A stretch of DNA of 64,000 nucleotides from Fluviicola sp. Its GTDB lineage: Bacteria; Bacteroidota; Bacteroidia; Flavobacteriales_D; Crocinitomicaceae. Position 1 is the stretch's first letter. Every line of letters starts with the position of its first letter. The notes below the pieces were generated by a model that was not told the DNA's origin, searched no databases, and worked only from the letters and a program-made list of their open reading frames with translations. The stretch lies in the NCBI GenBank assembly GCA_029866325.1, contig JARWZO010000016.1, positions 1 through 64,000 on the forward strand, written 5' to 3'. Positions 888-19,961 of this stretch are shown piece by piece. The translations under genes and the position numbers were made by a program.

Positions 888-3800
888 TTATTGAACCTTC
901 ACTTCTTTAGTGTCTTCTTCCCAAGTTGCTTCATCAACTACAATCCAACTATTATTTGATTTCATCTCAATAATTCGCATCTCTTTATTTGTATTACCCA
1001 ATTCATATCTAGTGATGCGATATTCATTTCCAGAGTTCCCAAATAACTGAGTGTCAGTCCCAACTTCCCTCCATTTTGGAGGGATGACCTTCGGTTTTGC
1101 AACTATAACTGGGGCACTATTTGTTACTGGCAACGGTTTACTACCTGTCAAAGCATTAATTCTATCCACATCACCATTTTGCATCGGAGAATCAAAGGCA
1201 TTTAAGGAGTTCGCTGTTGCTTGACCATTACCATAATCACGGTCCGGTGTACGTATAATTTCTTTAGCAGTATTAACCTGTTTAGCGCCCGGAATAGGAA
1301 CACAATAACGTCTATAAAAACGACCTCTACTAACCCCCCCTGTACCAGGCATTCTAGTATTATCAAAAACAGCATTATTGGTTTCTATAGAGGGTCCTTC
1401 CCCGCCATTATCAGAACCAATATAACAGGTGCCTCCCCAATTAGGTCTATAATCTCGATGTGGGTTTCTGTTATAAGTATCTCCTTTCAAATCATCATAC
1501 GCCCAGTCAGGCGCACCCGTCTTCATAAAATGATCAAACTGCTCCCAAGAATCAGAAATAACAGTAGCAGCATCAGTTGCCGCCTGTTTGGCCGTAGAAA
1601 AATAGTCATACAAAATTTTACCCGCTTCCTCAAACTCTAAGCCTTCTAATTCCACCCCATCAATAACTCTATTCTCACTAAACGCATACGGTGAGTTGTG
1701 TGGATAAGATGCTGCTAATGGATCAATTGCAAAGAATCGTCCGATTCTAGGGTCGTGCATACGATACTCGTAATTAAGCGAGTTATTCACACCTTTTAGC
1801 TCATCATCTTTTTCTTGACCTTGAAATGAGTATCGATAGTCTGAAACGCTTCCGTTACGGTATGGGAGAACCTGACCAAAGGGGTAATAATCACTATAAC
1901 TCACCACATCCGGTTCAAAGAACGCCACAATGTTGCCACTTCCACCATTATCAGGCAATTTGCGATCCGTCACCACATTCAGCACGTTTCCGAGGTGGTT
2001 AGCCAATTCATACCGCTTATCACCTACTTGATTCGCTATTTCATAACTTGTTGGCGCACTGCTTCCCGTGCCAAACGCATCGCCCGGTCCTTCCAACGCT
2101 ATATTACTGATTGTAAAACTCATGTTGGCATTCGTGCTTTCAATGGCTAGCCATTTAATGCGCACTTTGTTGGGTGCATTAGCAGGAACGGTAAATGTTT
2201 CGCTGTAATGCCCTGCCGCGGTGCTGGCTGTGTTTACATACATACCTCCTACGCAGTTCCGCACTTCATACGATAATGCAACTACATTGGCTGTACCTAC
2301 TACATCAAAACTCAAGGTGTAACTTTCACCCGGCACTACATTCGCCGCAAATTGTGCACTCATGGCTGGGAACGTAACATCGTTGTTGCTAAACCGAACA
2401 TCGGGGGCATTATCACTGTTAAAATCTCCTGTAGTTGCCGTGGTGCCACTTACTTCGTAGTACCATTGACCCGTAGATGTGCACAAACCACCTACACTCA
2501 CCTCTGTAATTGGCGAGAGCGGTAAATAGTCTATGAGTTGTTCTAATGGCATTTCTTGTGATAGTTGTTCTTGACCAATACGGCTAGAGCCATATAGGTT
2601 TCTCTCCGAAAGATACAATTTATTTGCATTACTTTTCCATTCATACATACTCATGGGGTTGCCTTGCGCATCCAGTACATAAAAGGTCTTGGTGGTTTCA
2701 CCGCCTTGGCTCACTATTTTCGCTATACGGTGACCCATGGCATCGTATTCAAAATGAATCACTGTACCATCGGTTTTTTGCACTTCTTCTACTTTGTTGG
2801 TCACTTTCCACTTGATGAGTGAAATGCCTTCGTCGGTATCTTCTATCAGCTGACCAATGGCATCATACCCATAATTCCCTGGGTTCATGCTGTTGTCCAA
2901 ATCAACATTGCCCACAACACTAGCCCCTGCTTCATCGTCTACCCAGCTCAAACGGTTGTTTTCACCGCCGTTAAATCCTTCTTCGTATTTATATGCAAAG
3001 TCGTCCATCGGCACAGGCAAAGGATTACCAAGAGCATTTACAGAGAGGTTTTTCATGTGTTCTAGGTTTCCGTTGGCATCATAGCTGTATTCGCTCGCAT
3101 AACCACTCGCAGCAGGTGTCACACCCGGTGTTACTGCCTTAAACCCATCCATTTTTACAATACGGTTCAACTGGTCATACCCATAACGCGTTTGGTGCGT
3201 GTAGCCACCCGCAAGGTTTTCAATCTCATCGCTCATCAAGGTGTGCATTGCACGGATATTGCCGTTGTATAAGCTAGCACCCAAGTTTGTTGCGCCTTGC
3301 GAAAAGCCTAGCATTTCAGTGTTGTGCGCGTTGTAATCGCCATCAAAATAACTCAAGCTATAGCCATACGCATCTTTGCCGATGTTGCCATTGATACTCG
3401 CTCCAACGCCTTCATGACCCATCATCGTAGTGGCAGTGTTCTCTTCGCCATTCACTGTCTTTAACCAACCTTGTATGGTGTAAGCATAGTCACAGGCTTG
3501 CACTTTGTCATCGCCAATTTCGGTGCGTGCCAATGGGCCATGATGATAATAGAAATACTTGGCGTCTTGCTCAAATACTACGTCGTCTTTCGAGGTTTCT
3601 ACACGTGTAATCCGGTTATCCGAATCATACGCATAACGGTGGATAAACTGATCTTTTTTCTCGGGCTGATACACTACTTCGTTTACATTGCCACTCACCA
3701 AATCATAGCTGTACGCTAGGTGTTTGATGTGTTGGTTCAAGGCTAGCAAATTCACATCATTGTTGATCTGAATGAGGTGTTTCACGTTACCATGTACGTC

Positions 3801-6800
3801 ATAATCGTAGAAGGTGGCGTTGTTGTAGATGTTTTGGCTAGCCACATACGTTTCTTGGTAAATAACCCCAACAATGCGGTTGCGCGTGTTGTCAATGGCA
3901 TATTCGCTACCAAACAAGTTGGCTACCGGCAGGGTGCCACCGTTTGCAATTGGTGCGGTTATTCCCGCCAATTCATCGTAGATAGATCGGGTAACTTCTT
4001 CGCGAATAAGGGTGAAATTATCAGGGAAATTCGTTGCATTCACTCCGGGCGACGGTTCGTTTCCGCTTACGCCAACCAAGCGACCAATGTCATTAATACT
4101 GTGGCCAGACAAGGTTAGTTCGCCTGCTTCTACCACTCTACCCAAGAAATCGTAGCGGGTATAACTAAACTGGTTGTCTGCTTGTTGTTTGGCATTTTGA
4201 CTCATGATCAACCTGCCCAAAAAGTCATACGCAAAGCGGCTTTCGCCTCCATCAGGCGTTTTTTGATACACCAGTTGGTTCAAAGAGTTGTACAAATAAA
4301 CCGTTTCAAGCGCATGATCGGGAGCTTGCTTAACACTGCTTGCCGTATTGGCAATGGCTTCGGGTTGAGTAGCACGCACTTCATCTATGGCTTCGTAAGT
4401 AAGCGTAGATGTTTCGCCTACTTCCAAACGATCTACTCCTTTTGGCGGAACAGTTTGTATCAAGTTACCGGCACGGTCATAATAGTACAAGGTATAATGG
4501 TATTCCTTATCAGCGTGCGTTTCGCTAAAGGTTTCTACCAAACTGCTCATGGCATTAGCGATGTAATCTTCTACAAAAGAAGCGGCCATTTGCGCCAGGT
4601 AAATATCGTATTGGTTGTCTTGGTTTACCACATTCACAAATTGTTCCCATTGGTCGCAAGGAAACTCAACATTAAAGTCAGGGAAGGTAATCTCAGGGCT
4701 TCTTGCCGGGCAAATTTCAGGATTTGCAACCATATACACCAAGCCCACATAATCATTCCAAGTAGTGTTGGGGTTGGCAACGGTGTAGGTCAAAAATGCG
4801 GTTAGAGCCACTGTCAACTTATCATTGGAATAGCCGAGTGGCGTTGCTCCAAATTCCGACAAACTCAAATAGCGTGCATCATTTACACTGTGTACATTGA
4901 ACCCATTGAGATAGGCTTGATAAGCCGTTGCGATATAGGCATAGCTATTTTCACAAAACAGGGCATCAGTTGGCAAGTATTCTTCTGCAAAAATAGCGTT
5001 GCTGTATTCAGCAGCAAACTGGCTTTGCATATACGTCAAATAAGCTGTATAGGCTGTGTTGCAACTCAACGGAGGCTCAGGCAATGGGCGGCATTCGGTT
5101 GGGCATGGTTTCGGGTTTTGCAAACAGCTTCCTGTTCCGTTTAAGGTAATAGACGTTCCATTTGCCAAATGTGCCAAGCAGCTAAATGACGTGTTTCCTG
5201 TCATTGTTACATCAGAAACAGACACAATAGCTTGCCCCGAATTGTTGCCTGAAAGTGAAACTGCACAGAAAACGGTTGTGCCCACACACGATGTTCCAAC
5301 GGGTGCAATATTGCTAAACAATCCACCTGTAGTGAGTGTATAACTCATCAACACCGGGTTTTGCACATTCAAATAAGGGGCTAGCTCTTCCAAGACATCG
5401 GGTTGTGCGCCACAGCCAACAGTAGGTTCGGTGAGTAAAAAATTAAGGTAATTGGTCAAGGCTTCTTCTTTGGTCAAGCCTGGCACGCAAGGGCAACTAA
5501 AATCTAACGTTAAATTACGCCCGAAGTTGTATTCATATTGGTACGATCCGGAAACAGTAGTGAAACTATTGCCATCGAGGTAATTGATGTATAAGGTATT
5601 GTTGATGAAAGCCACCGAATTCAACACATCCAACCCACTTGGCAATGCACCGGAAAGTGTAAATCGAAGACTATTGATTCCTGCAGTCAATTGAATGTCG
5701 TTTCCTGGAAGATTTCCATCCCACACAGCCGCTGCATTTCCTAAATAGAATGGCAGCACCGAGTTTGTATAAGCTGGCTCGTTGGCTAAACTCACATTGT
5801 TTTGCGTCAGTTGTCCGTTGATGTGCAGGGTTTGCAGCAAGGTTTGCATAGCGGCTTCAAACTCTTCGTCTTTGTTGCAATTGGGGTCTAAACCACCATT
5901 GGCTTCAAAGGCAGTTTGGCACGCATCTAGGTTCACCGAACTTTGGTACGTAACAACGTATTCACGGGCACTTTCAGGTGTTGTCCCTGCTTTTATAATG
6001 AGCTGTACGTTGGTAGAATTAGGTACAGGATAACTGTGAAAAACGTTGTAAATTTTCCAATCTGTGGGTTGGTCTCCGTAATCTGTCCAAGGCAACAGTA
6101 GATCCAATTGCGGCACTATTACTGTTTGAGTAGATGAAGGTCCAACCGACGTAAAGGTGAGGTGTAAATCTGTTCCAATGATCGTTCCTGCAACGGTCAT
6201 GTTAGATGAATTTACAACCGGTGCTTGTCCGGCAAAGGCAGTAAATACATCAGGCGAAAGTTGCGGCAAACTAGCCATTTGCGTGGTAGTTGTCAATAAG
6301 TTTCCTACTGCTAATGCTTTGAGTAATTGCTCTATGTCTACCGTGAGTGGACACAAGCCTGTTTCTTCCCATGTAGCATAATCGGCGTCTTGCTCAAGAT
6401 CTGCAAACAACAATTCGGTTGGCAAGGCAGGGTTGTACATTGCATCTACACGAACAATGCGAATGGTTTTATCATTGTAAGCAGCCCCAGCTAAAGCATA
6501 AGGAGGTAAGTTGGCAGTGATCGGACCAGATGAATACGATTGAATATAGTTGTTCAATACCAGTGAAACCACATTTGGGAAATTGACTGCATCATTGGCA
6601 AATGTTGGAGCGATACCAACACTCACGCCGTCTTCACCAATAGCGCCATTAAACAACCCTACATTCACAGTGGTTGCACCGACAAGCGGAAAGTTAAACG
6701 TGATCGGACTCAAATGCTGAAAACCGTGAACGTCCATAAACAATTGATTGATCTTGGATTTGTAAGAGGTATAATACGATTTGTAGGTTTGCCAGATGGC

Positions 6801-9800
6801 ATCAATGTCGTTCGGGTAGTTCGTTGCCAAATCGCCCCATGTGATTGGTCCTGTAACGGTACAAGATCCACTGTAATCATTGCCACACAGCACTGTTTTA
6901 GCCGCATACTCAAGCATAGAAAGACCTGTGTTTTCATAATTGGCAAGTGCCTCTGTCATCAAGGAGTTTTTAAGCACAGTAGCTGTACCTCCGTTGATTG
7001 CCGTATGAACCGCATAAGTTTGATTAAAATACGGATCTATTGCCATCAAATCACCTGCTTGTAATAAGTCGAAGGTGTTAAAGGTTACTCCATCAACAGT
7101 TACTTCAAACGCACGAGCTACGCTGTATTTGTTGGCTTGTGTATTTACAAAATGATCAAACACATCACTTGTCATGTTTACCGGCACATTATTAATTGTA
7201 TTGATGGCAGTTTCGCCAGCACAAATATCCAAGGCGTATTGATACAGCGGGTATTCCGGGTGAAACTGAACTAACGCCTCTGCCCAGCTAGACTCAAATA
7301 CATCGGTGAAACTGCTTACTTCCAATAAATCTGTTGGAAGCACTTGATACGTTCCTGGTAGGTTGCCATTGGCCAATGCTGGAGTCACACCAGCAATTAA
7401 CGCAGGTTGATAAGTCGTTCCATCAAAGTTAACGCTTACGGTTGCCGCGTTGCCGTTTTCATCTAGGTAAACAGCATCTCGCCAGTTGCCCGTCAATTCA
7501 TTGGATTCATTAAAAATACTCAGCGGATCACCAGCCGCCAAACCGCCGTATTGTCCTTGCGGGTGGAAGTCACCGGCCATACTGCTTTGGTAGATTTCAC
7601 ATATACTCAACGGCTGACATGGTGCAATACAGTCGTTCAACGCTTGGTTGTATTTATTGGTGTAACTAGTTTCTTGTTCTTCTGTCAATTCTTGAACACC
7701 TTCCAACAAAGCTGCATCAATCAAGTAATCCGGTAATGAACCCAAAGCAGTAACACATTCTGCACAGGTTTGTCCGCAATCCACTTCCACTACATCTAAA
7801 AAGTGAGAAGGTGGCAGCAAACAAAGGTTACTTTCTGATAAATAATTGGCTTTATAAGCTTCCAAAGCCGCCTCGTTCACTTTAATTTCTTTGGTCAAGG
7901 TATAAGTTCCCTGTGGCAAGGTTTCTGTTTCTGCAAAGGTCAAAAATTCACCAACCGTTCCGCCAATTTGTATTTCGCTAATAGCTTCGTAGGTATGAAC
8001 GAAGAATTCTTGTCCACAATCGTTGCGTAAACTCAATGTGAGATCATACACAAAAGGATAGTGGATGTTTGTTCCGGTACACGACGCATCATATACATCG
8101 GTTTGAACTGTATAGCTAAAGTTAAAAATTCCATCTTGAATGGCTACAAATTGTGTCCCTAATCGCAAAGCATCATTGGCGATACCAAAACGTCCGGTAC
8201 TGATCAATTCATTGTCGTCTTGCGGTGTATCGGTATCAGTTGCATTCAATTTATTAAGCAAATCAGTGGTTGCCTGCAAGTGATTTCCGGCATCTTCCGA
8301 CTCTAAACTTGAAAAAGCAGTTTCGTTATTACCTGCCAATGCTGTGGCAACTACACGACCTTGTGCATCAAGGTAAGAAATGCTCACTTGCCCATTAGCG
8401 TCCACCACCATGTTTTTCTTGTAACGTTGCTTGTAACCCACTTTGTAGCCAAACAAACGATCTAATTCTTCTTGACTAGGTTGTGCATAATAATAAAACG
8501 TTTCATGACCGCCGCCAATTTTATGTGTTCCGCCCACACCGCTTTGGTTGCGAATACGACCTGTATTATCAGGTGTGTATTCTACCTGCGTGAAAGGGTA
8601 TTGCTGTGCATCCGGTACGTATTGCTGCCAATCGGTATCGGTAGTATGTGCGTCGGGCGAATAATAATTGGAAGCTCCTGTTGTGGTTGACATAGGAGAT
8701 GCCGGCACAACATCGCATGGAGCATTTTCTTCATCTTCCACTACCACTTCCCAATCAAAATCTTGGTGACTGTAGGTTTGATCGTTCGCATTGTTGTTCA
8801 GATCGGGATAATACTGAATGGCGGGGTTTTTCTGTGGAGCAGGCAACACCTGAATCACACCACGACCTTCATTGTCATAAACCGTTTCACCAACTACCGA
8901 TTGGTTATCTGAATTGATGCGTGTAACCGTTTGTCGACCCCGTAAGCTACCATCAAAGTATTGCGCTACTTCCTTTTTCTTGCCATCTTCGGCATAAGTA
9001 GCTTGGTATTGCCAGTTCTTTTTCTGCTCGTGTTCCTGATCGATCGTAATAACATTCGACCAATCGGCAACTACAGCTTTTGTCCCTGCAGTTCCACTCC
9101 AAACACCAAATTTATCTTGTTCAACTGCATCCATCCAACGTCCAACGCCACGCACTCGGTAAACGAGATAACCTTTTGCGAAGATTTGCGGTATGCGGTA
9201 ATGCTGCAAACTAGTGCGAATACGCGTGCTGTTACGTGCAAATTCTTGTTCAGTAAGTGTAAGATTAGACTGCGCTATTACTGTGTTTATATCAACATCA
9301 GAATAATTATCTACCCACGTCCATTCAACATCATAGTATTCCGCACCTTCCACATACGACCAACTCAACTCCAACTCATCAGCCGCACCTGTTGGAGTTG
9401 CTTGTTGGTTATAGGCAATAGTTTCAGTTCCGTTGGTTGCATAACTAATGAAATTATGCATTAAGACAGGTGTTTGTGCTTCATTGAGTTGGTAATAACG
9501 CTCGGCTGCTACACCCGCTTCCAAATACACATAATTGGGCATTTGTCCCGCGCTGACAACACCATTTACGCTTACACTCACCACCTGTATATCAAATTTA
9601 TACACTCCCAACATGCGGTAATCTTCGGCATCAACCGTTAGGTTGTTTCCTCCGGAGGTGTATTGTGCCTCTAAAAAAACAGTAGTTGGTGCCTGTGAAA
9701 CGCCAAAATTGGTATACGGAGTGATTTTCACTTGTACAATAACAGTTGTGAGACCTGCCGTATAGGTCATGTTTGGAACTTCTGCCAATCCTAATCGCAC

Positions 9801-9986
9801 ATAGCTATGTGATTTAGCATCTGCAAACACCCCATTGTTGAGAGTTGCAAAATCGCCATCCTGAATTTGCAGTTGACCACCGTAAATGGAATTTCCTTCC
9901 AATCGATGATTCCACAAAACATCTGCCCCCACTGCCGAAAAAACGGTGAAGAAAAGTCCGATCAATAATCCTACTAATGCTCGCAT
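888..9986 (-). CDS. Giant secreted DUF6443/RHS-repeat protein with RHS-associated core and unique C-terminal tail (3032 aa)
   Basis: Very large surface or secreted protein of the Bacteroidota RHS type. A signal peptide covers residues 1-21 ([20 protein letters not shown], then AD). Residues about 320-385 match the DUF6443 style ([20 protein letters not shown], then VIQVLPAP). A Cys-rich middle begins near 735 (CGQTCAEC, later GQYGGL). YD/RHS repeats run from about 1825 to 2650 ([46 protein letters not shown]). The RHS core lies at about 2715-2785 ([42 protein letters not shown]). The last 245 residues resemble nothing I know. In this family the tail is often a variable toxin or effector module, but no catalytic motif is recognised. 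It is the last gene of the operon, 100 bp after its neighbour. RHS assignment is firm; function is inferred. Confidence 0.9.
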
Positions 9987-10086: not shown

Positions 10087-11334
10087 TCACTCGTTTTTCG
10101 GGTTGCTAGTTCTACTCTCTTGAATGGTCATAATACCATTAGCCGTTTCTTTTTTGATACGAATCAATTTCCCTTCTTTGTCATACTCATAAAAAGTAGC
10201 ATAGTTGTTATCGTCTAACTCGGCGGTTAACCAAAACGTTTCAGGATCGTTGACATACGATTTCATACTACCATTGAAGGGATGAATGCGAATGTCATCA
10301 AAGTAAGCATCTACTGAACCAACTGCGTTTGCAAGACGAATGTCGATTGTTTGCGTACCAACTGGAACTGTAAATTCTCCTACAATGCGCTGCCAGCCAT
10401 CGATGATGTCTCCAGTTGGTTTAAATTCAACCGACTGTGCCGTACCATTAAAAATCAAGTTCACCGACGTATTTGTATAGGTTTTTACTTGACTGGGATG
10501 GATTTCTTTTACCCATGCACTCACCCAATAGCGTTTGTTGGCGCTAGGACGAAAGGTAAAACACTGGTTACATTGCGTTGGATCATCTTCCGATTCGTGC
10601 CGAACATCAAATACTGTAACCACATTTAGCGGGCAAGTTGGTAAAGCGGTATTGCGTACCGATAATTCTGCCAAATGTTGTCCTTCGTTAAAGGTTTTGG
10701 TCAATAACGTAACGGGACCGGCGGTTGGCAAAGCAGGCGCGGCAGAAGTTCCAGCCGGAATAACCCTCTCACCATCAACCGACAATTCATACGTATAACC
10801 AATTGCCGGGGAGCCAAAATTGGAAAAATCCATCACCAATGAAATTGGATCTGTATCCAGTGGAACAGGATTATTAGGAGTAGCCACTAAATCAATACTC
10901 AAGGTATTTACGCGTACCAAAAAGGTAGTGGTAGTGGTAGTTGCATCGCAGATAGCATTCAAATTAGCTCCATTTGATGTGAGATTGACAGCATCTGACG
11001 AACAACTTACCCCATTTACATTAATCGTTGCTATAGCCGAAACCGAATAGGTATTGGTATTTTGATAGGTGTGTGTTACTTGTAAGGAGTTGGTTGTTTT
11101 CGTGGTACCATCACCCATCGTCCACACTACTGATTCAATCTGATACGGATCTGCTATGGAATTGGGACATACTGCTAGTGATAAGGTAACCGTTCCACCT
11201 TGAATACACCCGCCATTTGATGTTTCATTGCCATAAAACACCACTTTGGGGCAGGTTTGGGCTTGAATGGAAAACACTCCAGACAAGATTGTCAAACTAA
11301 CTATGATTAAACGCATCGTTCTCATTTTCTTCAC
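10087..11334 (-). CDS. Secreted PKD-domain protein with carbohydrate-binding-like module (415 aa)
   Basis: Secreted protein. A signal peptide ends near SIQAQ (residue about 26). A PKD-type fold spans about 45-105 (WTMGDGTTKTT, then VTHTYQNTNTYSVSA). After a linker, residues about 250-350 look like a galactose-binding-type beta module (KRYWVSAWVKE, GWQRIVGEFTVP, AYFDDIRIHPF). The C-terminus (ATFYEYDKEGKLIRIKKET, then IMTIQESR) is the ending I associate with large Bacteroidota RHS-neighbour proteins. The start is uncertain: GTG at 11334, or ATG at 11325 or 11316. It begins 7 bp after the stop of the 1865-aa gene and is probably co-translated with it. It may be a split-off C-terminal part of that protein (inference). 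Confidence 0.8.
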   Translation of the reverse strand: MKKMRTMRLIIVSLTILSGVFSIQAQTCPKVVFYGNETSNGGCIQGGTVTLSLAVCPNSIADPYQIESVVWTMGDGTTKTTNSLQVTHTYQNTNTYSVSAIATINVNGVSCSSDAVNLTSNGANLNAICDATTTTTTFLVRVNTLSIDLVATPNNPVPLDTDPISLVMDFSNFGSPAIGYTYELSVDGERVIPAGTSAAPALPTAGPVTLLTKTFNEGQHLAELSVRNTALPTCPLNVVTVFDVRHESEDDPTQCNQCFTFRPSANKRYWVSAWVKEIHPSQVKTYTNTSVNLIFNGTAQSVEFKPTGDIIDGWQRIVGEFTVPVGTQTIDIRLANAVGSVDAYFDDIRIHPFNGSMKSYVNDPETFWLTAELDDNNYATFYEYDKEGKLIRIKKETANGIMTIQESRTSNPKNE

Positions 11335-11341
11335 TATTAGG

Positions 11342-14300
11342 TTATGGTTGTGCCACTGGCGGACAAGCGATTCTTTTATTCAATGTAACGTTAGTTCCAC
11401 CTGTCACCTTAATACTGTATCTTCCTGTATGTGCCTGGGATGGATCGGCTTCGGCAAGCCCTCTAAAGCTAAAGTGTGTATTCGATTCACACCCTTCAAG
11501 TTCATAATCTTCAAAACCATCATATCCGATTTCGCGGTAACGCGTATTGGCACCCACAGCCATTGGCAAGGTGTTATTATAGCCGTATTGTGCAGCAGAA
11601 TAACGATTCAAGGCATCTCGGTTTTCAATTTCAAAACCATAAGGGCTGTATTTTGAAACCTCTGAAACAAAAGTCCAATTGGTGGCGTTGGTAAACCAAC
11701 TCTGAGAAGCCGATAGCTTGTAATACGGTTCAAACTTGGTGAAATACCCTTCTCTTCTCGGTGTAATTTCAGCTTGTTTATTTCTGCCCGTCAAGTAAGT
11801 TCTTGACGATTTCGTACGCCAAACTCCACGTTCATTTTTGCGGTACGGATTGTCGCCAACCCTTTTAATACCGCATTCACAACCAGCAGGCCAGTAGTCA
11901 GAATAATTAACAGTACCCGCATTGATGATTTTCCAATCATCCCAGCTATCACCACTCAAGAATGTTGTTCCAAGATTTGTAATATCCGCTCCATTAATGT
12001 CTTTGAGTGGGTTGCGCATTAAGGTAACATTCATAATTCCCGCCGACTGCAAATTGCGGTGTCCTGAACGAATAACAGTAAACGATCCACTTGCTCCGTT
12101 AATTGGTGCTCCCAAATCATTGATAAGTTTAAAGTTATTGCCTTGTACATCCGTCACCCATGCTTTTGGTCTGATGCCGTTTGCATTTGCAATTCCATAC
12201 ACCAACTCATCGCCATTAATCAAGAAATCTTTTGACATATAACCTGCCGGCAGGTTTTGCATAGAATATGTTGCACCGTTGGCTGCCAAGGTTCCTTCGA
12301 TACCAAGATTTAGAGCCGCTTGCGCCATTCCACTATACACCCAATGTGCCGGGTAATTAAATGTATAATACGGTTCGTTGTATTCATCCACCGTTTCTGT
12401 TACCAATACTTCGCCTGTCATGGCATCCCACGCCAAGTTGCGTGTATACACTTCGGCTCCATCTTCAAACGCAACTGTTTCTTTAAGAATTCCAAACGTA
12501 TTAATGACTTTGGTTGTAGAAACCGCTCGGAACTGGTCTTCTGTTTTGTTTATTTCCGGAATGAGAGAAGGTATCGCAATACCAATACCAGCAAAGAAAG
12601 CTCCGATGTTTCCTTGTACTGTGGGAATATAGGTTGTGCTCTTATTCTCACTAAAATCATGCACAATATCAGTTTCTACTCCGATGGTTTCCATTTTCAC
12701 ATCACCGTTCGGATAAATCACTTTCACTTTATTGTCAAGCGTGCCTTTATTGCGTGCAGGGTTGTTTGGTCCTGCAGCGGCATAACCATCATAGAAATAC
12801 TTCACACCGGAAATAGGTGTTGTTTGTCCGGCAGCATACACACTTTGTGCTTTTTGCTTACCGTTCATATCATTGAGGTGAATCACATAACCTTGTGAGG
12901 CTGTGAAATGTTTTTTGACATTGGCTTTCAAAACACTTTGAATCACATCCTTATCGTCTTCTTTGGCTTCCAATATGGTTTGGTCAACAATGGTAGGATA
13001 GTCGCGCGAGGTGAAAAACTCGGTGATGACACTTCCCGTTTGGTGTAGTTTTTTCACTTGCATGTTCGCCGTTGGTGCTTCACCCGCAACAAGGTTTGAT
13101 ACTCTAACTCGCCCATAAGTTACCTGCGGACTAGGGAAAAACGATTCACCAAAAGGCATTTCTACATAGTTTTCTTCATCTGGTGCCAATAAATGATTGG
13201 TTGTTGCAACAACTGGTTGCACAAATGGATTTTCCTTGTTCCCAACTGGTTCGTAGGTTGCCACACCACTCGACTTTCCATCTTCATTGGTGTACTCGTA
13301 TTGCTGACCATAATTCATGGTTTGGTAATCGCCCTGTCCCGGGTTCATTTCTTCCCACACATCGGTCATGCGCACTTCTTTCACGCGGGCACCACCGCCA
13401 CGTTTAAATCCGGTTGGTTCATTTAAACGAACCCACGATTTTTCTTTGATAAAACGACGACCTATTGATTTGTTTTCTAAGGTCACATTCGGTCCGGTAA
13501 AAATCTCTTTGAGGTTACTCAACACATTGGCAGAAAGCAACTCATTAACAATCGCTTGGATATCTTCCGAATCACCGTTTGGCTGGTTGCTATACACATG
13601 TTGACTCAAGTATTTTTTTCCAAAGTTCCACGCTGCTTTGGTAATTGGATTTACCTGTTTATCAGGGCTAACGCCTCCTTCACGTTTTACCGTTTTAATT
13701 GGAATGCTGAGATATCGTTTACCATTTCTGGTAAATATTCTTGGCGTTTCACTTGTATTCCATTCCGCATAACCTGTTACATAATCAAATTTGGCTTCGT
13801 TTAATGCATCAGGGGAAGTTGCGTCTCCACCGGCTTGCGTCATATTGGTTAAAAACCGGAAGTGAATAAGTCCATTTTCAAGGTTGCTTAAAAACAATTT
13901 TTCAATCGCATCATCATTATCATTATCAGCAAAAGAAGTAGGTATTTCCGCATACAAGTAGGTGTTTGGCGAATCATTCAAATCGTTGGCAAATAACACA
14001 TCGGAATCGGCACCAGTTATATTATCAGGATTATTATTCGTTCCAGCTCCCATTACTTTGTACATGCGGAGGGCATGCCTATCTTGCACATACTGGTAAT
14101 CATCCGATTCATACTTCACCGATATAAATCCGCCAGAAGGCAAGCTGATCTTTTTCATGCTCCAAACCGCAGCACGAACATCTTGAATGTCTTTGTCCTG
14201 TTCCGTAAACGGAAATTCGGCAGCAGTTACTGTGCTTGTATTGTCGCAATTTCCTTCATTGGGTTTGAAATTGCCCCAAGAGTCATATCCTTTGATGTTG

Positions 14301-16939
14301 TAAACCGGGTTTTCTTGAAGGTTATTAACCAAGGTAGCCGGATTAGAAACCGAAAATTCATCTTGTCCGCCTTGGTATTCATTGTAGTTAAACTTATACC
14401 CCGTGTATTTTCCCATTTTGGAATCGCGGTACGTGAAGTAAATCTTTTTCAAAGTCAGTTTACCTCCTTTATTCGAGAGCTCATTTTCAGCAAGGTTCTG
14501 TGTTCCATCATTGTTAGGAATACCTTGGCAAAGTGAATAGGAATACACAAAATTGACGGTTTTGATTGGAACTGCTGTGCCCGGATTGGCTTCATATTCT
14601 GCACGTGAATACAATCGGATTTTATCCAATTTATAGGAATGTTGCGTATTGTCACGCCCACCATTTTCGCCCAAAACACCTTTGGCATCTTTTCGTGCTG
14701 ATAAATCAAAAAAGGCAATATGTGTTTTGGTTTCTATTTTAGTTACATACAATTGCTCCTTTTCACCATAGACATAATTACCCATGTCATCTTTCGTATC
14801 AGTGTTCAAGCCTTGATTAAACGTAGCTTTGTTCTGATCATAAGGCACACGCCAGCGATAAGCTGCTCCAAGCTTATTTTCGTAAGAAAACTTAGTATAG
14901 CTTCCAAAATCATCTACCGTTGGTCCATCATTGTCTAAATCTTGGTAATCAGTTGACAGGATAGAAGACAGCAAATAAGTATGAGCATACGCTGGTGTGG
15001 TAGTTCGATTGAAGTTTTCATTATTGATCGAATTATCGGCACTATTATCGACTCCAGCCTGATAGTCAACCAAACCTGAATTGCAATTGGCATGTTGGGC
15101 ATCGCCATAAACAGAGAATGAGGCTTCTCTTTTTATTAGATTGTAGGCGGGAATACCGTAGATGTAACGCGCTCCATCGTTTCGGATCACTTGCACTTCG
15201 GCAGTATGGTGCGTTCTTGCTACTGAAGGCAAGGCATGTTCCGGATTTCCAGCTCTTTTCACACAAGGACCATAACCTACCCCCGACAAAACGTCTGAAA
15301 CAGTCAGATTATATATAGCTTGGTTGCGTGCCTGACGTTTGGTGCGTTTTGTGGCAGAACCAACACTTATAGGGTACTCATTTCCTTCAGCATTGTACTT
15401 GTATTTCAACTGATTGATAACGGTGCGTTGAAACTTGTTTCCCACATACGTTACACGAGTTGGTTCATAACCACCAACTTGATCAAACAATTCGTAATCT
15501 TGATCAACGCTTAAATCACCTACATTTTTAAAATGTACCTTCTCATAGCGCGGATTGTAGCCATACGTCTCTTTCAAATACTGCAAGATGTAATTGTCTT
15601 GCTCCCACACACCTGATCGGCTATCAGTGATTGATCCTTCGAAATCTGCACCATTATGGGCAGCATTTCCAACTCCAAATTCCAAACCAAGCGTTCCGGA
15701 AACAGCCAAATCTTGTACATCTGCATCATAGACATACCCTACTTGGTTACGATATGGTCGGTACATACCAGATACTCCCTGACCTTGCACCGAATAAATG
15801 TCGTACGTATAATTAGTCAAGTGTAAGTTGGTTGAATTGACACTAAACGAACCTTCTTTTTCGCGGTTAAAATCCAATATAGCTGTATTTCCGGCTTTAT
15901 CAGTATGTTGATATCCGTATGCAGGAGCAATTTTATTGCGTTCATCAGGAGCTACTGACTGTACTGTGCCATAAGCAGTAACTTCACCTTGCGCTTCACC
16001 ACCAAAAAACTCTGAACCCAAAGCGGCGTTGACGGTGAAACTTTCGTTGTTCATAGCCGTACGTTTATTGGGGGTATAGATATTGTCTGTGAAACCAATA
16101 GAAGAGCCTAGTGAACCCATTTTATCTACTTTTTCCCACTTACCATTCTTTCTTGCCAACACTTGGGATTTCTGTTGCATACCAAGTGTCATATTGGTAA
16201 GTCCTTGTCTGGAATTAATTGAAACTCCAAAATTGAGACCAACACTATTCAACCTGCTCTTTTCATTTTTCGATTTTCCATGTAATGAAAGTGTTGGCGA
16301 AATAGACAACCCATCTGGTCCTGATTCGGCATTAAAGCCAACAGAAGCCGTTTTACCCAAATCCAATTTAATGCCCACACTTGGCTTCATGGTGAAACCT
16401 GTATAGTTGTTATACATAACTGAAACACCATAAGAAATGTTTCCATCTGCATCATTGTCGGAATCATTATTCGCAGGCGGGATTGGTACCCCGTTAGCAT
16501 CTACTCCAAAAACATTGGGTGTAACCTTAAAACTGGCACCAACCGTTACATTGGGTTTCATGTGGTTTTCATACACCATTTCGTCTCCCTTAAAATCATC
16601 GGGAATACCACGCACATTGCGGTTAACCTGCCCAACCGACAGATTCCAACCAAGACCTACCCAAGAGGCTTCATCATCCATTCCAACTCCCGAAGAATAA
16701 GCAATGTTTAAAGGGTACCCACCCACATCCATCAAGGGAATATTGTAGTTCATATCACCGCTCGACAAATCAACCATATCGGAAGTGCCAATTGGTGTAA
16801 ACGACCCAAACTCGGGTTGTGCCGGACCGCCTGTGAGAGCAAGCGCACGCATTGGAGCAACTATTTCAGCAAGAATGCTTAGAATAAGATAAACACTTAC
16901 TACTTTGAAGGCTTTGCTTTGTTGAATACGTTGTATCAT
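11342..16939 (-). CDS. Giant secreted RHS-associated surface protein (1865 aa)
   Basis: The N-terminus has a long hydrophobic signal (residues about 10-35) followed by ALTGGPAQPEFGSFTPIGT, then DMVDLSSGDMNYNIPL and ASWVGLGWNL. This opening is a recurring signature of very large Bacteroidota proteins with SpvB-like beta-rich N-termini, recalled rather than searched. The middle consists of long beta-strand-rich segments (YDIYSVQGQGVSGMYRPYR, SLPSGGFISVKYESDDYQYV) without an enzymatic motif. The C-terminus (GYDGFEDYELEGCES, AHTGRYSIKV) looks like the start of a carbohydrate-binding-type module that ends abruptly with CPPVAQP, as if the rest were encoded by the next gene 7 bp downstream. The gap to the upstream lipoprotein gene is 24 bp. 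Probably exported to the cell surface together with the RHS protein. Function unknown. Confidence 0.85.
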   Translation of the reverse strand: MIQRIQQSKAFKVVSVYLILSILAEIVAPMRALALTGGPAQPEFGSFTPIGTSDMVDLSSGDMNYNIPLMDVGGYPLNIAYSSGVGMDDEASWVGLGWNLSVGQVNRNVRGIPDDFKGDEMVYENHMKPNVTVGASFKVTPNVFGVDANGVPIPPANNDSDNDADGNISYGVSVMYNNYTGFTMKPSVGIKLDLGKTASVGFNAESGPDGLSISPTLSLHGKSKNEKSRLNSVGLNFGVSINSRQGLTNMTLGMQQKSQVLARKNGKWEKVDKMGSLGSSIGFTDNIYTPNKRTAMNNESFTVNAALGSEFFGGEAQGEVTAYGTVQSVAPDERNKIAPAYGYQHTDKAGNTAILDFNREKEGSFSVNSTNLHLTNYTYDIYSVQGQGVSGMYRPYRNQVGYVYDADVQDLAVSGTLGLEFGVGNAAHNGADFEGSITDSRSGVWEQDNYILQYLKETYGYNPRYEKVHFKNVGDLSVDQDYELFDQVGGYEPTRVTYVGNKFQRTVINQLKYKYNAEGNEYPISVGSATKRTKRQARNQAIYNLTVSDVLSGVGYGPCVKRAGNPEHALPSVARTHHTAEVQVIRNDGARYIYGIPAYNLIKREASFSVYGDAQHANCNSGLVDYQAGVDNSADNSINNENFNRTTTPAYAHTYLLSSILSTDYQDLDNDGPTVDDFGSYTKFSYENKLGAAYRWRVPYDQNKATFNQGLNTDTKDDMGNYVYGEKEQLYVTKIETKTHIAFFDLSARKDAKGVLGENGGRDNTQHSYKLDKIRLYSRAEYEANPGTAVPIKTVNFVYSYSLCQGIPNNDGTQNLAENELSNKGGKLTLKKIYFTYRDSKMGKYTGYKFNYNEYQGGQDEFSVSNPATLVNNLQENPVYNIKGYDSWGNFKPNEGNCDNTSTVTAAEFPFTEQDKDIQDVRAAVWSMKKISLPSGGFISVKYESDDYQYVQDRHALRMYKVMGAGTNNNPDNITGADSDVLFANDLNDSPNTYLYAEIPTSFADNDNDDAIEKLFLSNLENGLIHFRFLTNMTQAGGDATSPDALNEAKFDYVTGYAEWNTSETPRIFTRNGKRYLSIPIKTVKREGGVSPDKQVNPITKAAWNFGKKYLSQHVYSNQPNGDSEDIQAIVNELLSANVLSNLKEIFTGPNVTLENKSIGRRFIKEKSWVRLNEPTGFKRGGGARVKEVRMTDVWEEMNPGQGDYQTMNYGQQYEYTNEDGKSSGVATYEPVGNKENPFVQPVVATTNHLLAPDEENYVEMPFGESFFPSPQVTYGRVRVSNLVAGEAPTANMQVKKLHQTGSVITEFFTSRDYPTIVDQTILEAKEDDKDVIQSVLKANVKKHFTASQGYVIHLNDMNGKQKAQSVYAAGQTTPISGVKYFYDGYAAAGPNNPARNKGTLDNKVKVIYPNGDVKMETIGVETDIVHDFSENKSTTYIPTVQGNIGAFFAGIGIAIPSLIPEINKTEDQFRAVSTTKVINTFGILKETVAFEDGAEVYTRNLAWDAMTGEVLVTETVDEYNEPYYTFNYPAHWVYSGMAQAALNLGIEGTLAANGATYSMQNLPAGYMSKDFLINGDELVYGIANANGIRPKAWVTDVQGNNFKLINDLGAPINGASGSFTVIRSGHRNLQSAGIMNVTLMRNPLKDINGADITNLGTTFLSGDSWDDWKIINAGTVNYSDYWPAGCECGIKRVGDNPYRKNERGVWRTKSSRTYLTGRNKQAEITPRREGYFTKFEPYYKLSASQSWFTNATNWTFVSEVSKYSPYGFEIENRDALNRYSAAQYGYNNTLPMAVGANTRYREIGYDGFEDYELEGCESNTHFSFRGLAEADPSQAHTGRYSIKVTGGTNVTLNKRIACPPVAQP

Positions 16940-16963
16940 AATGGAGTATTTTAAACTTCTTTT

Positions 16964-17551
16964 CTACTTATTAACTGTAAATCGCATCAGACCGGCACCA
17001 AACAATCGGTCATAATAGATAATGGTTGAAAGTTGGGTTGCCGACACGTCTTCAAAAAAGAGGAATGCGCGTACTTGACCTATTTGTCCTACACTTTTTT
17101 CATAGTGCACACCTGTCGGAGAAACTTTTTTCCCTGCTTGTTCAAGTGTAACATCGCTGGCAAGTTCACCTACCAAATACTGCGTTGCAGCTTCTTTGTC
17201 TAGTGTAATTTGGTCAGAATCCAAAATGTCTTTTTGCGATTTCGCGTGCTGAAACGTGGCAATCATTACTACTTCTTTTTTAAGGTCAGCGGTGTCTGAA
17301 GCAGCTACCTTTTCACCCTTTTTTGTCACAAAATCAAGCGCTGACATCAATTGGAATGAATAGGTGATTTCGTTGTGCGTTTTTGAATTACTCGAACCCA
17401 TTTTAGGAGTCTGATTGTTGTGCACCTCCAACACCTTTCCATTGCTTGAGCCAATGGCTGATTGATTTGCTGGAATAGTTGGCGCAGCATCTTGACATCC
17501 ACTAGTGAGTAGGATGATCAGAAACAAGAAAGGTGGTATCGCTTGTTGCAT
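16964..17551 (-). CDS. Putative lipoprotein, unknown function (195 aa)
   Basis: A short hydrophobic leader ends in LLTSGCQD, a lipobox with the modified Cys near residue 19. The mature part has a low-complexity linker rich in Ser, Asn and Thr (residues about 30-60), then a mixed alpha/beta domain with no motif I recognise; its end reads IIYYDRLFGAGLMRFTVNK. The ATG overlaps the stop of the OmpH-like gene by one base (TAATG), so translation is probably coupled. By context it may help assemble or anchor the giant proteins encoded next. That role is inferred only from position. Confidence 0.75.
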   Translation of the reverse strand: MQQAIPPFLFLIILLTSGCQDAAPTIPANQSAIGSSNGKVLEVHNNQTPKMGSSNSKTHNEITYSFQLMSALDFVTKKGEKVAASDTADLKKEVVMIATFQHAKSQKDILDSDQITLDKEAATQYLVGELASDVTLEQAGKKVSPTGVHYEKSVGQIGQVRAFLFFEDVSATQLSTIIYYDRLFGAGLMRFTVNK

Positions 17552-18039
17552 TACTTCGTGTATTCCTTATTAATATACGTTATTAGGTCTTTGGTAATGT
17601 CATTCTTATCATCCACATACATTACATTGCCTTGTCCATTCGATCCAAGAATGATAGAGTAACCCTTCTTTTTTCCAAATGCTTTAATGTATTCGTTTAA
17701 TCGTTTGTAAACGTCGCTGGTGTATTGTTCTGAAATTCCAGCAAATTTTTCATCAAATGCCAGTTTTCTCATTGTAAATTCTTTTTTGAGTGCCGCAATT
17801 TTTGCCGGATCAGTTGTTGCATTCAACTGAGCTCCTAACGAGTCTAAGCCCATTTGATCGGCACCAACCTGAGCCTCTAAACGTTTATCATAATCCTTTT
17901 TCATTTCAAATTCTTCAAAGACTTTGAAACTGTCCATAAAAACAATGTGTTCATCCGACTTTTTGTCTTCTGAACAAGAAGTCACGAAAAATGCCAAAAG
18001 CATTACTACTATTCCATGTATCAGGTGGTTTTTCATCAT
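17551..18039 (-). CDS. OmpH/Skp-like chaperone with lipoprotein signal (162 aa)
   Basis: Matches the size and layout of the OmpH/Skp family, periplasmic chaperones that hold unfolded outer-membrane proteins. After the leader comes a short beta strand (HIVFMDSFKVFEEFEMKKDY). A charged helical region at residues about 50-125 resembles the tentacle arms (MGLDSLGAQLNA, AALKKEFTMRKLAFDEKFAG), followed by a closing beta segment (GYSIILGSNGQGNVMYVDD). Unlike classical Skp it carries a lipobox (AFFVTSCSED, Cys near 22) and so is probably membrane-anchored. Its start overlaps the previous stop by 4 bp (ATGA). A dedicated chaperone for the giant proteins of the same operon is a plausible role (inference). 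Confidence 0.8.
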   Translation of the reverse strand: MMKNHLIHGIVVMLLAFFVTSCSEDKKSDEHIVFMDSFKVFEEFEMKKDYDKRLEAQVGADQMGLDSLGAQLNATTDPAKIAALKKEFTMRKLAFDEKFAGISEQYTSDVYKRLNEYIKAFGKKKGYSIILGSNGQGNVMYVDDKNDITKDLITYINKEYTK

Positions 18040-19388
18040 TTACTAAATCTCAAATAAAACACTTCATTTTTCTCATTGGTTACTTCCAACACATAACTTG
18101 CATTTGAAAGCAGGGCTGTTACACTCAATTCATAGCGATTATCGCCCAGTTTTCTAGGTAAAACCACTTGTGTTGAGCCAGCAACCGCAGCCGAACTCTG
18201 CACCGTTTTGTTTTCAAAATTCACGATGCGGTACGTAAGGTTTGTCGATTCAACGGGCACATATTCTTCGGTGTAATAAAACAATAATTTGGAGGTCGTC
18301 TTGTAATTTTCACCGCGCAATTGTCGTGTTAACTGCGCATAAACAGGTGATTCTTTGCAAGGGAAACTTGTGACAATAGAAGTCAATCCATCACTAACTA
18401 TAGACGAATAACCTCTTACATAGAGTTCATTGGTATGCGTAATAGAAAAGTTCTGAATGATATTCGAATTACCCGTGGTTGCACGAGCCTTTAAAGGAGT
18501 TGTTGAATTTTCCTGATAGAATTTTATGACTCCTCCCACACGCTCAACCCGCACACGTTCGGTTATCAAAACATTTTGAAGTTTATAAATCAACGCTCCA
18601 TTTTTCACATAAATGCCTTGTCCCGATATGTTGGTTGAATTGGCAGCCTTGCGGTATTCCAAATAGGCCCCCAATGAAGGATTAAACGTTGCTGCATTGT
18701 CTAAGGACAAATAAACACTCCTTGCTGCAGATGATGAAGAAAATTGAGCACCAGTTTCAAGAAAACCATTTGTGTTTACGACCCAATAATTGGCGCTGAT
18801 CCCAGACGCATACGTTACACCAGCAGTAGTAACATTTCTACTCATAGAAGATGCATTTGGTGTTGCAACCATGTCTGTTAAACTCGACCATGTAACATTA
18901 TAACCTACCGTAAAAGTTGAGGTTTGATAGACAATCGTTGGTTTACTAAAATTACCATTTCCCAAAATTCGTCTCACGTAAATGGAGGCAGAAATGGTAT
19001 AAACACCCGGTTTTAAATCTTCTTGCAATGCCAATGCTGAAATATCAAAAGCACCAGAAATAGTTGAGTTGCCAACTGTTCCGCCAAAATTGGTTGCCAA
19101 AACCAGCCCCATTGGACCAGTTTCCGCTTTTCGCAATTCGAACTTGGTACTTCCCAATACAAAATCATAATCCTGTGGAAAAGTCCAATTGGCAGATGGG
19201 GTTATTGTAGCAGTATAATTAGCTAGCATTGTTCCCGAAAAACAAGCTCTATTAGATGAAACTGTTTGAATACTTGCCGTAAATTGTGCGGCATTGACTT
19301 TAAAAGCCATCAGCAAGAAGAGTGAAAACACCCACTTATAAACAGTGTATCTTTTTAAGTATGGCGGTTGATAAATCGTTTGAATCAT
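18036..19388 (-). CDS. Secreted beta-rich protein of unknown function (450 aa from the preferred start)
   Basis: ATG at 19388 is preferred because it lies 4 bp after the stop of the upstream gene; an in-frame ATG at 19415 would overlap that gene by 23 bp. A signal segment (WVFSLFLLMAFKVNAAQF) follows a basic start. The rest is Ser/Thr/Asn-rich and predicted to be beta-stranded. It contains YNVTWSSLTDMVATPN, which resembles lectin-like or concanavalin-type modules that precede RHS-type Bacteroidota proteins, but this is weak. The C-terminal stretch (YVLEVTNEKNEVFYLRFSK) looks like the strand ending of a T9SS-type sorting domain. The stop overlaps the OmpH-like ATG by 4 bp. Function unknown. 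Confidence 0.75.
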   Translation of the reverse strand: MIQTIYQPPYLKRYTVYKWVFSLFLLMAFKVNAAQFTASIQTVSSNRACFSGTMLANYTATITPSANWTFPQDYDFVLGSTKFELRKAETGPMGLVLATNFGGTVGNSTISGAFDISALALQEDLKPGVYTISASIYVRRILGNGNFSKPTIVYQTSTFTVGYNVTWSSLTDMVATPNASSMSRNVTTAGVTYASGISANYWVVNTNGFLETGAQFSSSSAARSVYLSLDNAATFNPSLGAYLEYRKAANSTNISGQGIYVKNGALIYKLQNVLITERVRVERVGGVIKFYQENSTTPLKARATTGNSNIIQNFSITHTNELYVRGYSSIVSDGLTSIVTSFPCKESPVYAQLTRQLRGENYKTTSKLLFYYTEEYVPVESTNLTYRIVNFENKTVQSSAAVAGSTQVVLPRKLGDNRYELSVTALLSNASYVLEVTNEKNEVFYLRFSK

Positions 19389-19392
19389 CTGA

Positions 19393-19809
19393 TTATTGTT
19401 TATAGTAAACTTCATTTTCTATTTCCTCAGAACCAAGTTGTGTCACCCAAACTCGTACAAACAAGTTCGGATCAGAAAACGTTCCTAGTTCAAATTCAAA
19501 GATCTTCTCAATAGGATCATAAACAAAAGCTGTCAAAGTGGAAGAAGCAGTATCAAGCATTGATATACTGCCTTCAAATAATAATTGTTGATTTTCTCCA
19601 ACGGCAATTACTTGTGCGTGAAACGTTAATGAATCTGAAAAATCGGCAATACCTTCAACTTTGTAGTTGAACTCATTCTGACTCACAGTATCAATAACAA
19701 CCGGTGAAATATTGAAGTATTGGCCATAACTATCATTTGCTAGTGCGAAAAATGCAACGAAAAACAGCATTTTTATACTTCGAAATGGTGTAACGAAAAG
19801 TTGATTCAT
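19393..19809 (-). CDS. Small secreted protein, unknown function (138 aa), first gene of the RHS operon
   Basis: ATG at 19809 (MNQLFVTPFRSIKMLFF) is preferred over an in-frame TTG at 19836. The leader is hydrophobic (MLFFVAFFALANDSYGQ) with cleavage likely after YGQ. The mature part is acidic and likely all-beta (SDSLTFHAQVIAVGENQQLL, FEFELGTFSDPNLFVRVWVT). No family is recognised. It is the first gene of the seven-gene minus-strand operon, about 115 nt downstream of the predicted transcription start. Confidence 0.7.
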   Translation of the reverse strand: MNQLFVTPFRSIKMLFFVAFFALANDSYGQYFNISPVVIDTVSQNEFNYKVEGIADFSDSLTFHAQVIAVGENQQLLFEGSISMLDTASSTLTAFVYDPIEKIFEFELGTFSDPNLFVRVWVTQLGSEEIENEVYYKQ

Positions 19810-19931
19810 AGTGATAATACGTTGACAATAGAACAATTAGGATTAAAACCAAATACTAACTGAATAAACGAAAAACACTATTATTTGCGTTAGGCAAGTA
19901 TTCATTTAGACTGTTTGGGTTGAACCTGAAC

Positions 19932-19961
19932 CAAAACTACAAAAGAATCGTTAGAATCCAA
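19932..19961 (-). promoter_or_regulatory. Predicted Bacteroidota housekeeping promoter of the RHS operon
   Basis: On the minus strand TTG (19961-19959) is followed after 19 nt by TAGTTTTG (19939-19932), an exact match to the TAnnTTTG -7 element with normal spacing. Transcription would start near 19925 and leave a leader of about 115 nt before the ATG at 19809. Confidence 0.5.

What the first reader, a model, noticed from the sequence alone, without database searches (positions are those of the whole stretch)
888..19961. Seven-gene operon coupling an OmpH/Skp-like lipoprotein to giant RHS-type surface proteins
From the promoter at 19932-19961, seven minus-strand genes follow with overlaps or very short gaps: two secreted proteins, a Skp-like lipoprotein, a second lipoprotein, and the 1865-, 415- and 3032-aa proteins. 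A dedicated chaperone plus lipoproteins upstream of giant proteins suggests a self-contained export and display system. I do not know a described system of this composition.
Basis: partly seen in the sequence, partly recalled or inferred. Interest (0 to 1): 0.7.

Follow-up and report, generated by a model that had tools for sequence, protein, structure and literature searches.

The report
Skp-equipped RHS toxin operon, type-II-secretion-linked
A seven-gene bacterial operon makes a multi-part toxin-like complex with its own chaperone, and in related bacteria this operon tends to occur together with one particular protein-export machine, which probably sends it out of the cell.

Summary
In detail: seven minus-strand genes (888-19809) follow one Bacteroidota-type promoter with gaps of -23 to 100 nt. 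The order CTD protein, OmpH/Skp, lipoprotein, giant, PKD protein, RHS giant recurs, with losses, in 40 loci fetched from relatives and 80 named loci. The last protein looks like a polymorphic-toxin carrier: of 253 pairs, 0 are similar in the last 150 residues, against 247 in a stretch before.

"Self-contained" export is not supported. A type II secretion system (T2SS) goes with the giant: 25 of 26 T2SS genomes have it (119 examined), and all 19 genomes with OmpH beside a giant have a T2SS. Where both share a contig they are usually within 13 kb. Here the T2SS lies on another contig, divergent from a second RHS operon. T9SS is near universal (117 of 119), so it cannot discriminate, though gene 2's family ends in a T9SS-like sorting domain.

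Best reading: a Tc/RHS-like multi-chain toxin with its own Skp, exported by a T2SS. The composition was reported once, in Flavobacterium psychrophilum (PMC5808330). New here: breadth of conservation, linkage statistics, anatomy of the giant. Secretion, toxicity and chaperone function are untested.

The parts
19932..19962 (-). Promoter-like element TTTG-N19-TAnnTTTG
   Evidence: one of two strict matches on the minus strand in 880-20150, the other inside a coding sequence
19393..19809 (-). Gene 1, 138 aa (ATG start), small secreted protein by eye; similarly sized genes stand at this place in several relatives, a sequence relative in one (L091)
   Evidence: no Pfam/NCBIfam match
18036..19415 (-). 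Gene 2, 459 aa secreted protein by eye; its family (38 slot-2 proteins scanned) has DNRLRE in 18 and CBM96 in 16, and a divergent T9SS-type-A-like C-terminal domain
17551..18039 (-). Gene 3, 162 aa OmpH/Skp family, lipobox by eye
   Evidence: PF03938 E 4.3e-14; 25 of 25 aligned family members match OmpH; Skp structure 1sg2 by family profile E 5.8e-15
16964..17551 (-). Gene 4, 195 aa lipoprotein (lipobox by eye), conserved in position
   Evidence: model pLDDT 85; no PDB match at E<=1e-3
11342..16939 (-). Gene 5, 'giant' 1865 aa; some relatives match SpvB or DUF6531 weakly
   Evidence: model of residues 33-1130 pLDDT 78; top Foldseek match SGS1, an RHS-like cage by recall
15614..16552 (-). Within gene 5 (residues ~130-442): 12 predicted strands of 10 or more residues, 10 of them with alternating hydrophobic/polar residues across 47 relatives, as in a membrane beta-barrel
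10087..11334 (-). Gene 6, 415 aa PKD protein; fused to the giant in many relatives
   Evidence: PF00801/PF18911
9987..10086 (.). 100-nt gap where most relatives carry a ~235-aa secreted gene (absent here)
888..9986 (-). Gene 7, 3032 aa RHS protein (DUF6443, RHS repeats, Rhs core)
1641..1889 (-). RHS-associated core (TIGR03696), residues 2700-2782
891..1640 (-). Variable C-terminal tail after the core, the expected effector domain; no domain match

Best explanation
The operon makes a multi-chain RHS toxin, related in plan to the B and C parts of Tc toxins, plus its own export helpers. The giant (gene 5) with the PKD protein (gene 6) would form one part of a protein shell. The RHS protein (gene 7) would form the rest and carry a variable C-terminal effector inside. 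All chains would enter the periplasm by Sec. The Skp-like protein (gene 3) and the lipoprotein (gene 4) would keep them, above all the giant's amphipathic strand-rich segment, from aggregating. A T2SS, encoded in this genome on contig C30 beside a second RHS operon, would then export the complex. The T9SS-type protein (gene 2) would be exported separately and act as surface anchor or adhesin. Shown here: gene content, conservation, variable tails, Skp membership, linkage to the T2SS. Inferred: export route, shell assembly, chaperone role, toxicity, anchoring.
For: Order recurs in loci of relatives and named genomes; counts per gene. T2SS and giant: 25 of 26 T2SS genomes have the giant, 40 of 119 genomes have the giant, Fisher 2.7e-14; by genus 15 of 16 T2SS genera, 53 genera in all, p 1e-6. 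Wider sample: 25 of 32 strong-GspE genomes against 22 of the other 313 have a giant hit, p 4e-19. All 19 genomes with OmpH next to a giant have a T2SS, against 6 of 21 giant genomes without it, p 1.4e-6. Of 14 relatives with GspE and a giant on one contig, 13 have them within 12.4 kb; of 19 such pairs in the wider sample 15 are within 13 kb (the own genome is in both sets). In the own genome the T2SS is divergent from a second giant/RHS operon. Of 52 named loci with enough flank, 12 show GspE or GspD within it, and 10 of these 12 have OmpH (28 of the 52 do). In Pelagihabitans, Tenacibaculum, Psychroserpens and Algibacter loci the T2SS genes run on the same strand up to OmpH. Variable tails: 0 of 253 pairs against 247 of 253.
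Against: 15 of 40 giant-bearing relatives and 22 of 47 in the wider sample have no T2SS by this search, so another route must exist for those versions. Many giant hits of the wider sample are weak (E down to 1e-4) and cover only about 80 N-terminal residues, so some may be other RHS proteins. Seven strong-GspE genomes of the wider sample have no giant hit. In G007 T2SS and giant are 494 kb apart, in G405 148 kb. Six of 25 T2SS-plus-giant relatives have no OmpH beside a giant. The 40 stretches fetched from relatives hold no GspE or GspD themselves; adjacency there rests on coordinates. Gene 2's family carries a T9SS-like signal. Evidence for a Tc-B-like giant is weak: SpvB in 2 of 22 members, best E 0.0033, none in P0003; no Tc structure by profile; Foldseek query TM 0.13. 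No ORF of 80 aa or more that could be an immunity gene lies between gene 7 and the IS ORFs. No GspC relative was recognised in the own T2SS cluster. The genomes are related, so the p-values overstate independence.
Confidence: 0.6

Rival explanations
1. T9SS route: the T9SS-like C-terminal domain of gene 2 carries the RHS complex through the SprA translocon in trans, with the operon's Skp acting like SkpA. The T2SS neighbour serves something else.
For: Gene 2 family against canonical CTDs of the same genome: hhalign probability 96%, E 4e-9, two controls 0.1-0.2%; Por_Secre_tail in 10 of 38 slot-2 proteins. SkpA is a structural part of the T9SS translocon in F. johnsoniae (PMC10994853, passages). 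TANFOR polymorphic toxins sit beside CTD proteins and were proposed as T9SS cargo (PMC7073777, parts 1-3 of 6). In the Psychroserpens locus L137 a 345-aa protein with a canonical-looking T9SS tail (by eye) lies between OmpH and the lipoprotein.
Against: SprA is in 117 of 119 relatives whether or not they have the operon, while the T2SS tracks the OmpH-type operon 19 of 19. L126, L131, L133, L134, L137 and L147, with T2SS and OmpH, have no hit to the gene-2 CTD profile, though L137 has the other tail just named. P0006 itself matches neither PF18962 nor TIGR04183.
Confidence: 0.2
2. Own-surface display: the giant is itself an outer-membrane protein whose 12-strand segment is a barrel placed by BAM with the help of the OmpH-like gene, holding the RHS protein on the cell surface.
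For: Alternation of hydrophobic and polar residues in 10 of 12 long strands over residues ~130-442; Foldseek matches to TonB receptors, secretins and NalP; Skp normally serves outer-membrane proteins (PMC10994853 passages).
Against: The barrel and secretin matches shown have query TM 0.03-0.10 and probabilities of 0.6 or less (50 of 954 rows seen); the model was not shown to close a barrel; the alternation scores use the best 10-residue window of each strand, and two strands outside the segment alternate as well; it gives no role to the T2SS.
Confidence: 0.15
3. Ordinary neighbourhood: RHS genes and T2SS genes sit in the same variable islands and are not functionally tied.
For: F. psychrophilum CC-ST10 carries the cluster as one of its specific gene clusters (PMC5808330); an IS1-type transposase fragment abuts the window operon.
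Against: Co-occurrence and close spacing hold over many genera.
Confidence: 0.05

Closest known systems
Flavobacterium psychrophilum CC-ST10 T2S cluster (FPSM_02418-02439; PMC5808330, passages read)
   Same: T2S genes, OmpH-family chaperone, two proteins with ABC-toxin domains, putative adhesin, dedicated translocation already proposed
   Different: One species, a short passage; the passages I saw give no wider conservation, linkage statistics, variable tails or anatomy of the giant
Tc (ABC) toxin B and C subunits
   Same: Two large chains from neighbouring genes, RHS repeats and core, variable C-terminus; weak SpvB match in 2 of 22 giants
   Different: No A (pore) subunit recognised in the operon; each chain appears to have its own Sec signal (by eye); PKD subunit, Skp and lipoprotein added; SpvB not found in the window protein
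TANFOR polymorphic toxins of Bacteroidetes (PMC7073777, parts 1-3 of 6 read)
   Same: Bacteroidota toxins with Sec signals and variable tails beside T9SS CTD proteins
   Different: No TANFOR domain in the window proteins; RHS body instead; T2SS linked
SkpA of the T9SS extended translocon (PMC10994853, passages read)
   Same: Skp homologue tied to a secretion machine in Bacteroidota
   Different: SkpA is a translocon part bound to SprA and SprE; here the gene is inside a cargo operon and tracks the T2SS
Bacteroidota T2SS of Cytophaga hutchinsonii (PMC5553014, passages read)
   Same: T2S-D, E, F, G and candidate L, M, C in Bacteroidota
   Different: Studied for cellulose use; 'Rhs' does not occur in the held main text

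Membership tests
OmpH/Skp chaperones | Skp/OmpH domain | tested here: met
   PF03938 E 4.3e-14; 25 of 25 aligned members; Skp structures by profile
OmpH/Skp chaperones | Holdase activity for envelope proteins | not testable with these tools
   needs biochemistry
RHS polymorphic toxins | YD/RHS repeats and RHS-associated core | tested here: met
   PF05593 E 3.6e-11, TIGR03696 E 2.5e-9
RHS polymorphic toxins | Conserved body with variable C-terminus | tested here: met
   23 closed RHS ORFs over 2000 aa: 0 of 253 tail pairs similar; 247 of 253 body pairs; 150-aa control 129 of 253
RHS polymorphic toxins | Immunity gene downstream | tested here: inconclusive
   Small same-strand ORF within 150 nt in 11 of 22 relatives; none of 80 aa or more in the window before the IS ORFs
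Tc (ABC) toxins | SpvB domain in the B subunit | tested here: inconclusive
   None in P0003; 2 of 22 members, best E 0.0033
Tc (ABC) toxins | A subunit (pore) encoded with B and C | tested here: not met
   No gene of the seven matches a Tc family in Pfam or NCBIfam; the rest of the genome was not searched for one
T2SS substrates | Sec signal peptide | tested here: inconclusive
   Signal-like N-termini judged by eye only
T2SS substrates | Secretion lost in T2SS mutants | not testable with these tools
   only genomic linkage tested
T9SS substrates (gene 2) | Type A C-terminal domain | tested here: inconclusive
   P0006 alone no match; slot-2 proteins 10 of 38 PF18962, profile comparison of 30 of them 96%
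T9SS substrates (genes 5 and 7) | C-terminal sorting domain | tested here: not met
   no CTD match at E<=0.1
TANFOR toxins | TANFOR domain TIGR02542 | tested here: not met
   no match at E<=0.1

The most novel reading that the evidence does not exclude
A widespread, dedicated 'T2SS-RHS' weapon of Bacteroidota: a T2SS whose main cargo is a multi-chain RHS complex, with a cargo-specific membrane-bound Skp that keeps a membrane-pore-forming segment of the giant silent in the periplasm, so that after secretion the giant itself supplies the pore that other Tc-like toxins get from a separate A subunit.
Probability: 0.22. Interest if true: 0.85.

Novelty: new variant of a known kind. Interest (0 to 1): 0.62.

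Why it matters
How RHS giants of Bacteroidota leave the cell is, to my knowledge, open. The window's giants have signal-like N-termini (by eye) but no T9SS signal match, and the 2012 polymorphic-toxin survey files signal-peptide toxins under 'T2SS/Sec-dependent', with no signature neighbourhood gene (PMC3482391 table 1, passage). A conserved T2SS-Skp-RHS association gives one testable answer and proposes a cargo for the little-studied Bacteroidota T2SS. It would also suggest that Skp can serve secreted toxins, not only outer-membrane proteins.

Tried and rejected
Single-protein search of genome contigs with P0003 found no relative; the alignment A6 did (best 80 of 552 kept). Profile search of solved structures with the giant family gave three matches, laminarinase and xylanase chains, best E 0.0033, at the C-terminal end. 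Fold search of the lipoprotein gave no match at E<=1e-3. SprA as a discriminator was rejected: near universal. The ~235-aa gene: one of 36 members matches LolA_like at E 0.0034, too weak to use. L103 and L112 genes after the giant were checked for TANFOR: none. Literature searches. Of the six papers I opened (PMC10994853, PMC7073777, PMC3482391, PMC5553014, PMC5808330, PMC5524665), PMC5808330 describes the composition; PMC5524665 (passages) reports a partial T2SS and an RHS core protein in F. columnare without linking them in the passages seen. The other listed papers were seen as listings only. The library states that it holds no bioRxiv preprints.

Corrections to my own steps: alignment A1 (38 rows) held mis-slotted barrel-like proteins; 8 rows (L086, L103, L104, L105, L106, L110, L112, L114) were dropped before the CTD comparison, leaving 30, each trimmed at an end motif of my choosing. 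The first comparison had some canonical rows read in the wrong orientation; one search repeats it with 29 of 30 canonical rows (L222 dropped). One search counted 20 OmpH-operon genomes; G021 has its OmpH on contigs without a giant, so recounts 19. The presence sets and coordinates were copied by hand from the listings; the 1e-80 cut for T2SS-type GspE in the wider sample is mine. Of the 25 T2SS-plus-giant relatives, 11 have the two on different contigs and give no distance; in the wider sample 7 of 25. The HMMs were built mainly from the 40 relative loci, so counts in those are partly by construction. One search recognised my core pattern in only 7 of 23 RHS proteins; therefore used fixed distances from the end for all 23.
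Full report
The window is the start of contig C13 of a 4.68-Mb draft genome. Fluviicola belongs to the Crocinitomicaceae, so the window probably comes from a Fluviicola-like member of that family.

Observation. The seven genes are present on the minus strand, with gaps of -23 to 100 nt, behind a strict match to the Bacteroidota promoter pattern. Pfam and NCBIfam identify OmpH (gene 3), PKD (gene 6) and RHS/DUF6443/Rhs core (gene 7). Genes 1, 2 and 5 have no match at E<=0.1; gene 4 has two matches far below their cut-offs.

Conservation. The giant is in 40 of 119 relatives, and the best OmpH matches lie directly upstream of giants. I fetched 40 loci from relatives and 80 named loci, whose record titles include Flavobacteriales, Chitinophagales, Cytophagales and Sphingobacteriales. 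The recurring order is secreted protein, OmpH, lipoprotein, giant, PKD (separate or fused), ~235-aa protein, RHS. In the 40 loci the family profiles find OmpH in 24, lipoprotein in 34, ~235-aa gene in 36, RHS in 37 and CTD protein in 32. In the 80 named loci, many cut by contig ends, they find 32, 52, 62, 61 and 41. The window operon lacks the ~235-aa gene.

Gene 7 as toxin carrier. I took the 23 RHS proteins, the window's included, that are closed ORFs over 2000 aa with E<1e-30 to P0001. No pair of 253 is similar in its last 150 residues. 247 of 253 pairs are similar in the stretch 900 to 400 residues from the end, and 129 of 253 in a 150-residue control stretch. Eleven of 22 relatives have a small ORF within 150 nt downstream. 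In the window the sequence after the stop runs into two short ORFs at the contig end, one of which matches IS1 transposase; no immunity gene is visible.

T2SS. In several marine Flavobacteriaceae the genes just upstream of OmpH are T2SS genes: in L131 GspF (T2SSF, E 3.9e-41), a pilin (N_methyl, E 9e-5), GspE (E 9e-121) and secretin (E 3.4e-35), and in L126 a PilN-like protein. Searching the same 119 relatives with GspE and GspD gave the same 26 genomes (in G050 both matches are weaker); 25 have the giant. All 19 genomes with OmpH beside a giant have the T2SS, against 6 of 21 giant genomes without. In a wider phylum sample of 345, 25 of 32 genomes with a strong GspE have a giant hit, against 22 of the other 313; many of those giant hits are short and weak. 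Where GspE and a giant share a contig they lie within 12.4 kb in 13 of 14 relatives and within 13 kb in 15 of 19 pairs of the wider sample; exceptions are G007, G342, G405, G459 and G124. In the window's own genome the T2SS (minus strand, G000:C30 about 98.7-109.5 kb; no GspC relative recognised) is divergent from a second giant/RHS operon that lacks OmpH, lipoprotein and ~235-aa gene. The window operon would use that T2SS in trans. These genomes are related, so the p-values are guides; collapsing to genera keeps 15 of 16 (p 1e-6). Of 52 named loci with enough flank, 12 show GspE or GspD; 10 of these 12 have OmpH, against 28 of the 52.

T9SS. SprA is in 117 of 119 relatives and so cannot discriminate. 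Gene 2's family nevertheless ends in a domain related to T9SS type A sorting domains (96% by profile comparison, two controls 0.1-0.2%; 10 of 38 slot-2 proteins by Pfam). A mixed model is possible: the T9SS exports the adhesin or anchor and the T2SS exports the toxin.

The giant. Its residues 33-1130 were modelled at pLDDT 78. The best Foldseek match is mosquito SGS1 (E 5e-5, query TM 0.13), which I recall as an RHS/Tc-like cage; most of the other rows shown are outer-membrane barrels and secretins with low scores. Across 47 relatives, 10 of the 12 strands of 10 or more residues in residues ~130-442 alternate hydrophobic (66-91%) and mostly polar (3-12% hydrophobic) positions; two do not. Scores use the best 10-residue window of each strand, and two strands elsewhere alternate as strongly. 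This hints at a barrel-forming segment and would give an Skp a natural client, but closure of a barrel is not shown. SpvB and DUF6531, both found at RHS/Tc N-termini (recalled), match 2 and 4 of 22 giants with best E about 0.003, none in P0003.

Versions without OmpH. For 6 of the 15 giant-bearing relatives without T2SS I fetched a locus (L086, L105, L106, L110, L111, L114). None shows OmpH. In five of them an upstream protein ends in barrel-like sequence by eye, and a ~250-aa protein follows in several (for similar named loci). Pfam gives no convincing assignment for two such large proteins. A different exit route there is possible and was not followed.

Prior art. PMC5808330 (passages of section 17) reports in F. 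psychrophilum CC-ST10 a ~35-kb cluster with T2S genes in two opposite loci, FPSM_02426 and FPSM_02429 with ABC-toxin domains, a putative adhesin and an OmpH-family chaperone, and suggests a dedicated role in translocation. So the composition is in print for one species. I found no general description in the ten library searches listed under Tried and rejected; that library holds open-licence papers only.

Verdict. Real, conserved and functionally coherent; a new variant of RHS/Tc-like polymorphic toxin systems tied to a T2SS, with secretion, assembly and killing all still inferred.

Noticed in passing
window 2-379 (-): IS1-type transposase fragment (PF03400, E 3.6e-7) at the contig edge, just downstream of the RHS gene.
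   Followed up: no
L095 (G000:C30:108500-128400) and L204: Second giant/RHS operon of the same genome, lacking OmpH, lipoprotein and ~235-aa gene, divergent from a T2SS cluster.
   Followed up: yes
L086, L105, L106, L110, L114, L164, L183 upstream of the giant: OmpH-less operons carry a ~640-800-aa protein with a barrel-like C-terminus (by eye); possibly another exporter.
   Followed up: partly
L126, L133, L147 (genes beside the lipoprotein): Proteins of 316-994 aa that share a C-terminal 'HLxNIPSA...LLEKIEELTLY' coiled-coil-like tail, near the place of the CTD protein.
   Followed up: no
L207 14382-15374, L205 6277-7281, L126 6283-7239: Conserved ~320-aa lipoprotein-like protein with weak Ig/PKD-like matches inside the Bacteroidota T2SS clusters, a possible lineage-specific T2SS part.
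   Followed up: no
window 29350-31320 (-): 656-aa protein with a von Willebrand A domain and a T9SS sorting domain.
   Followed up: no
whole genome G000: 150 T9SS sorting-domain matches were scored of 253 candidates, the ceiling of the search, so the T9SS cargo set is large.
   Followed up: no
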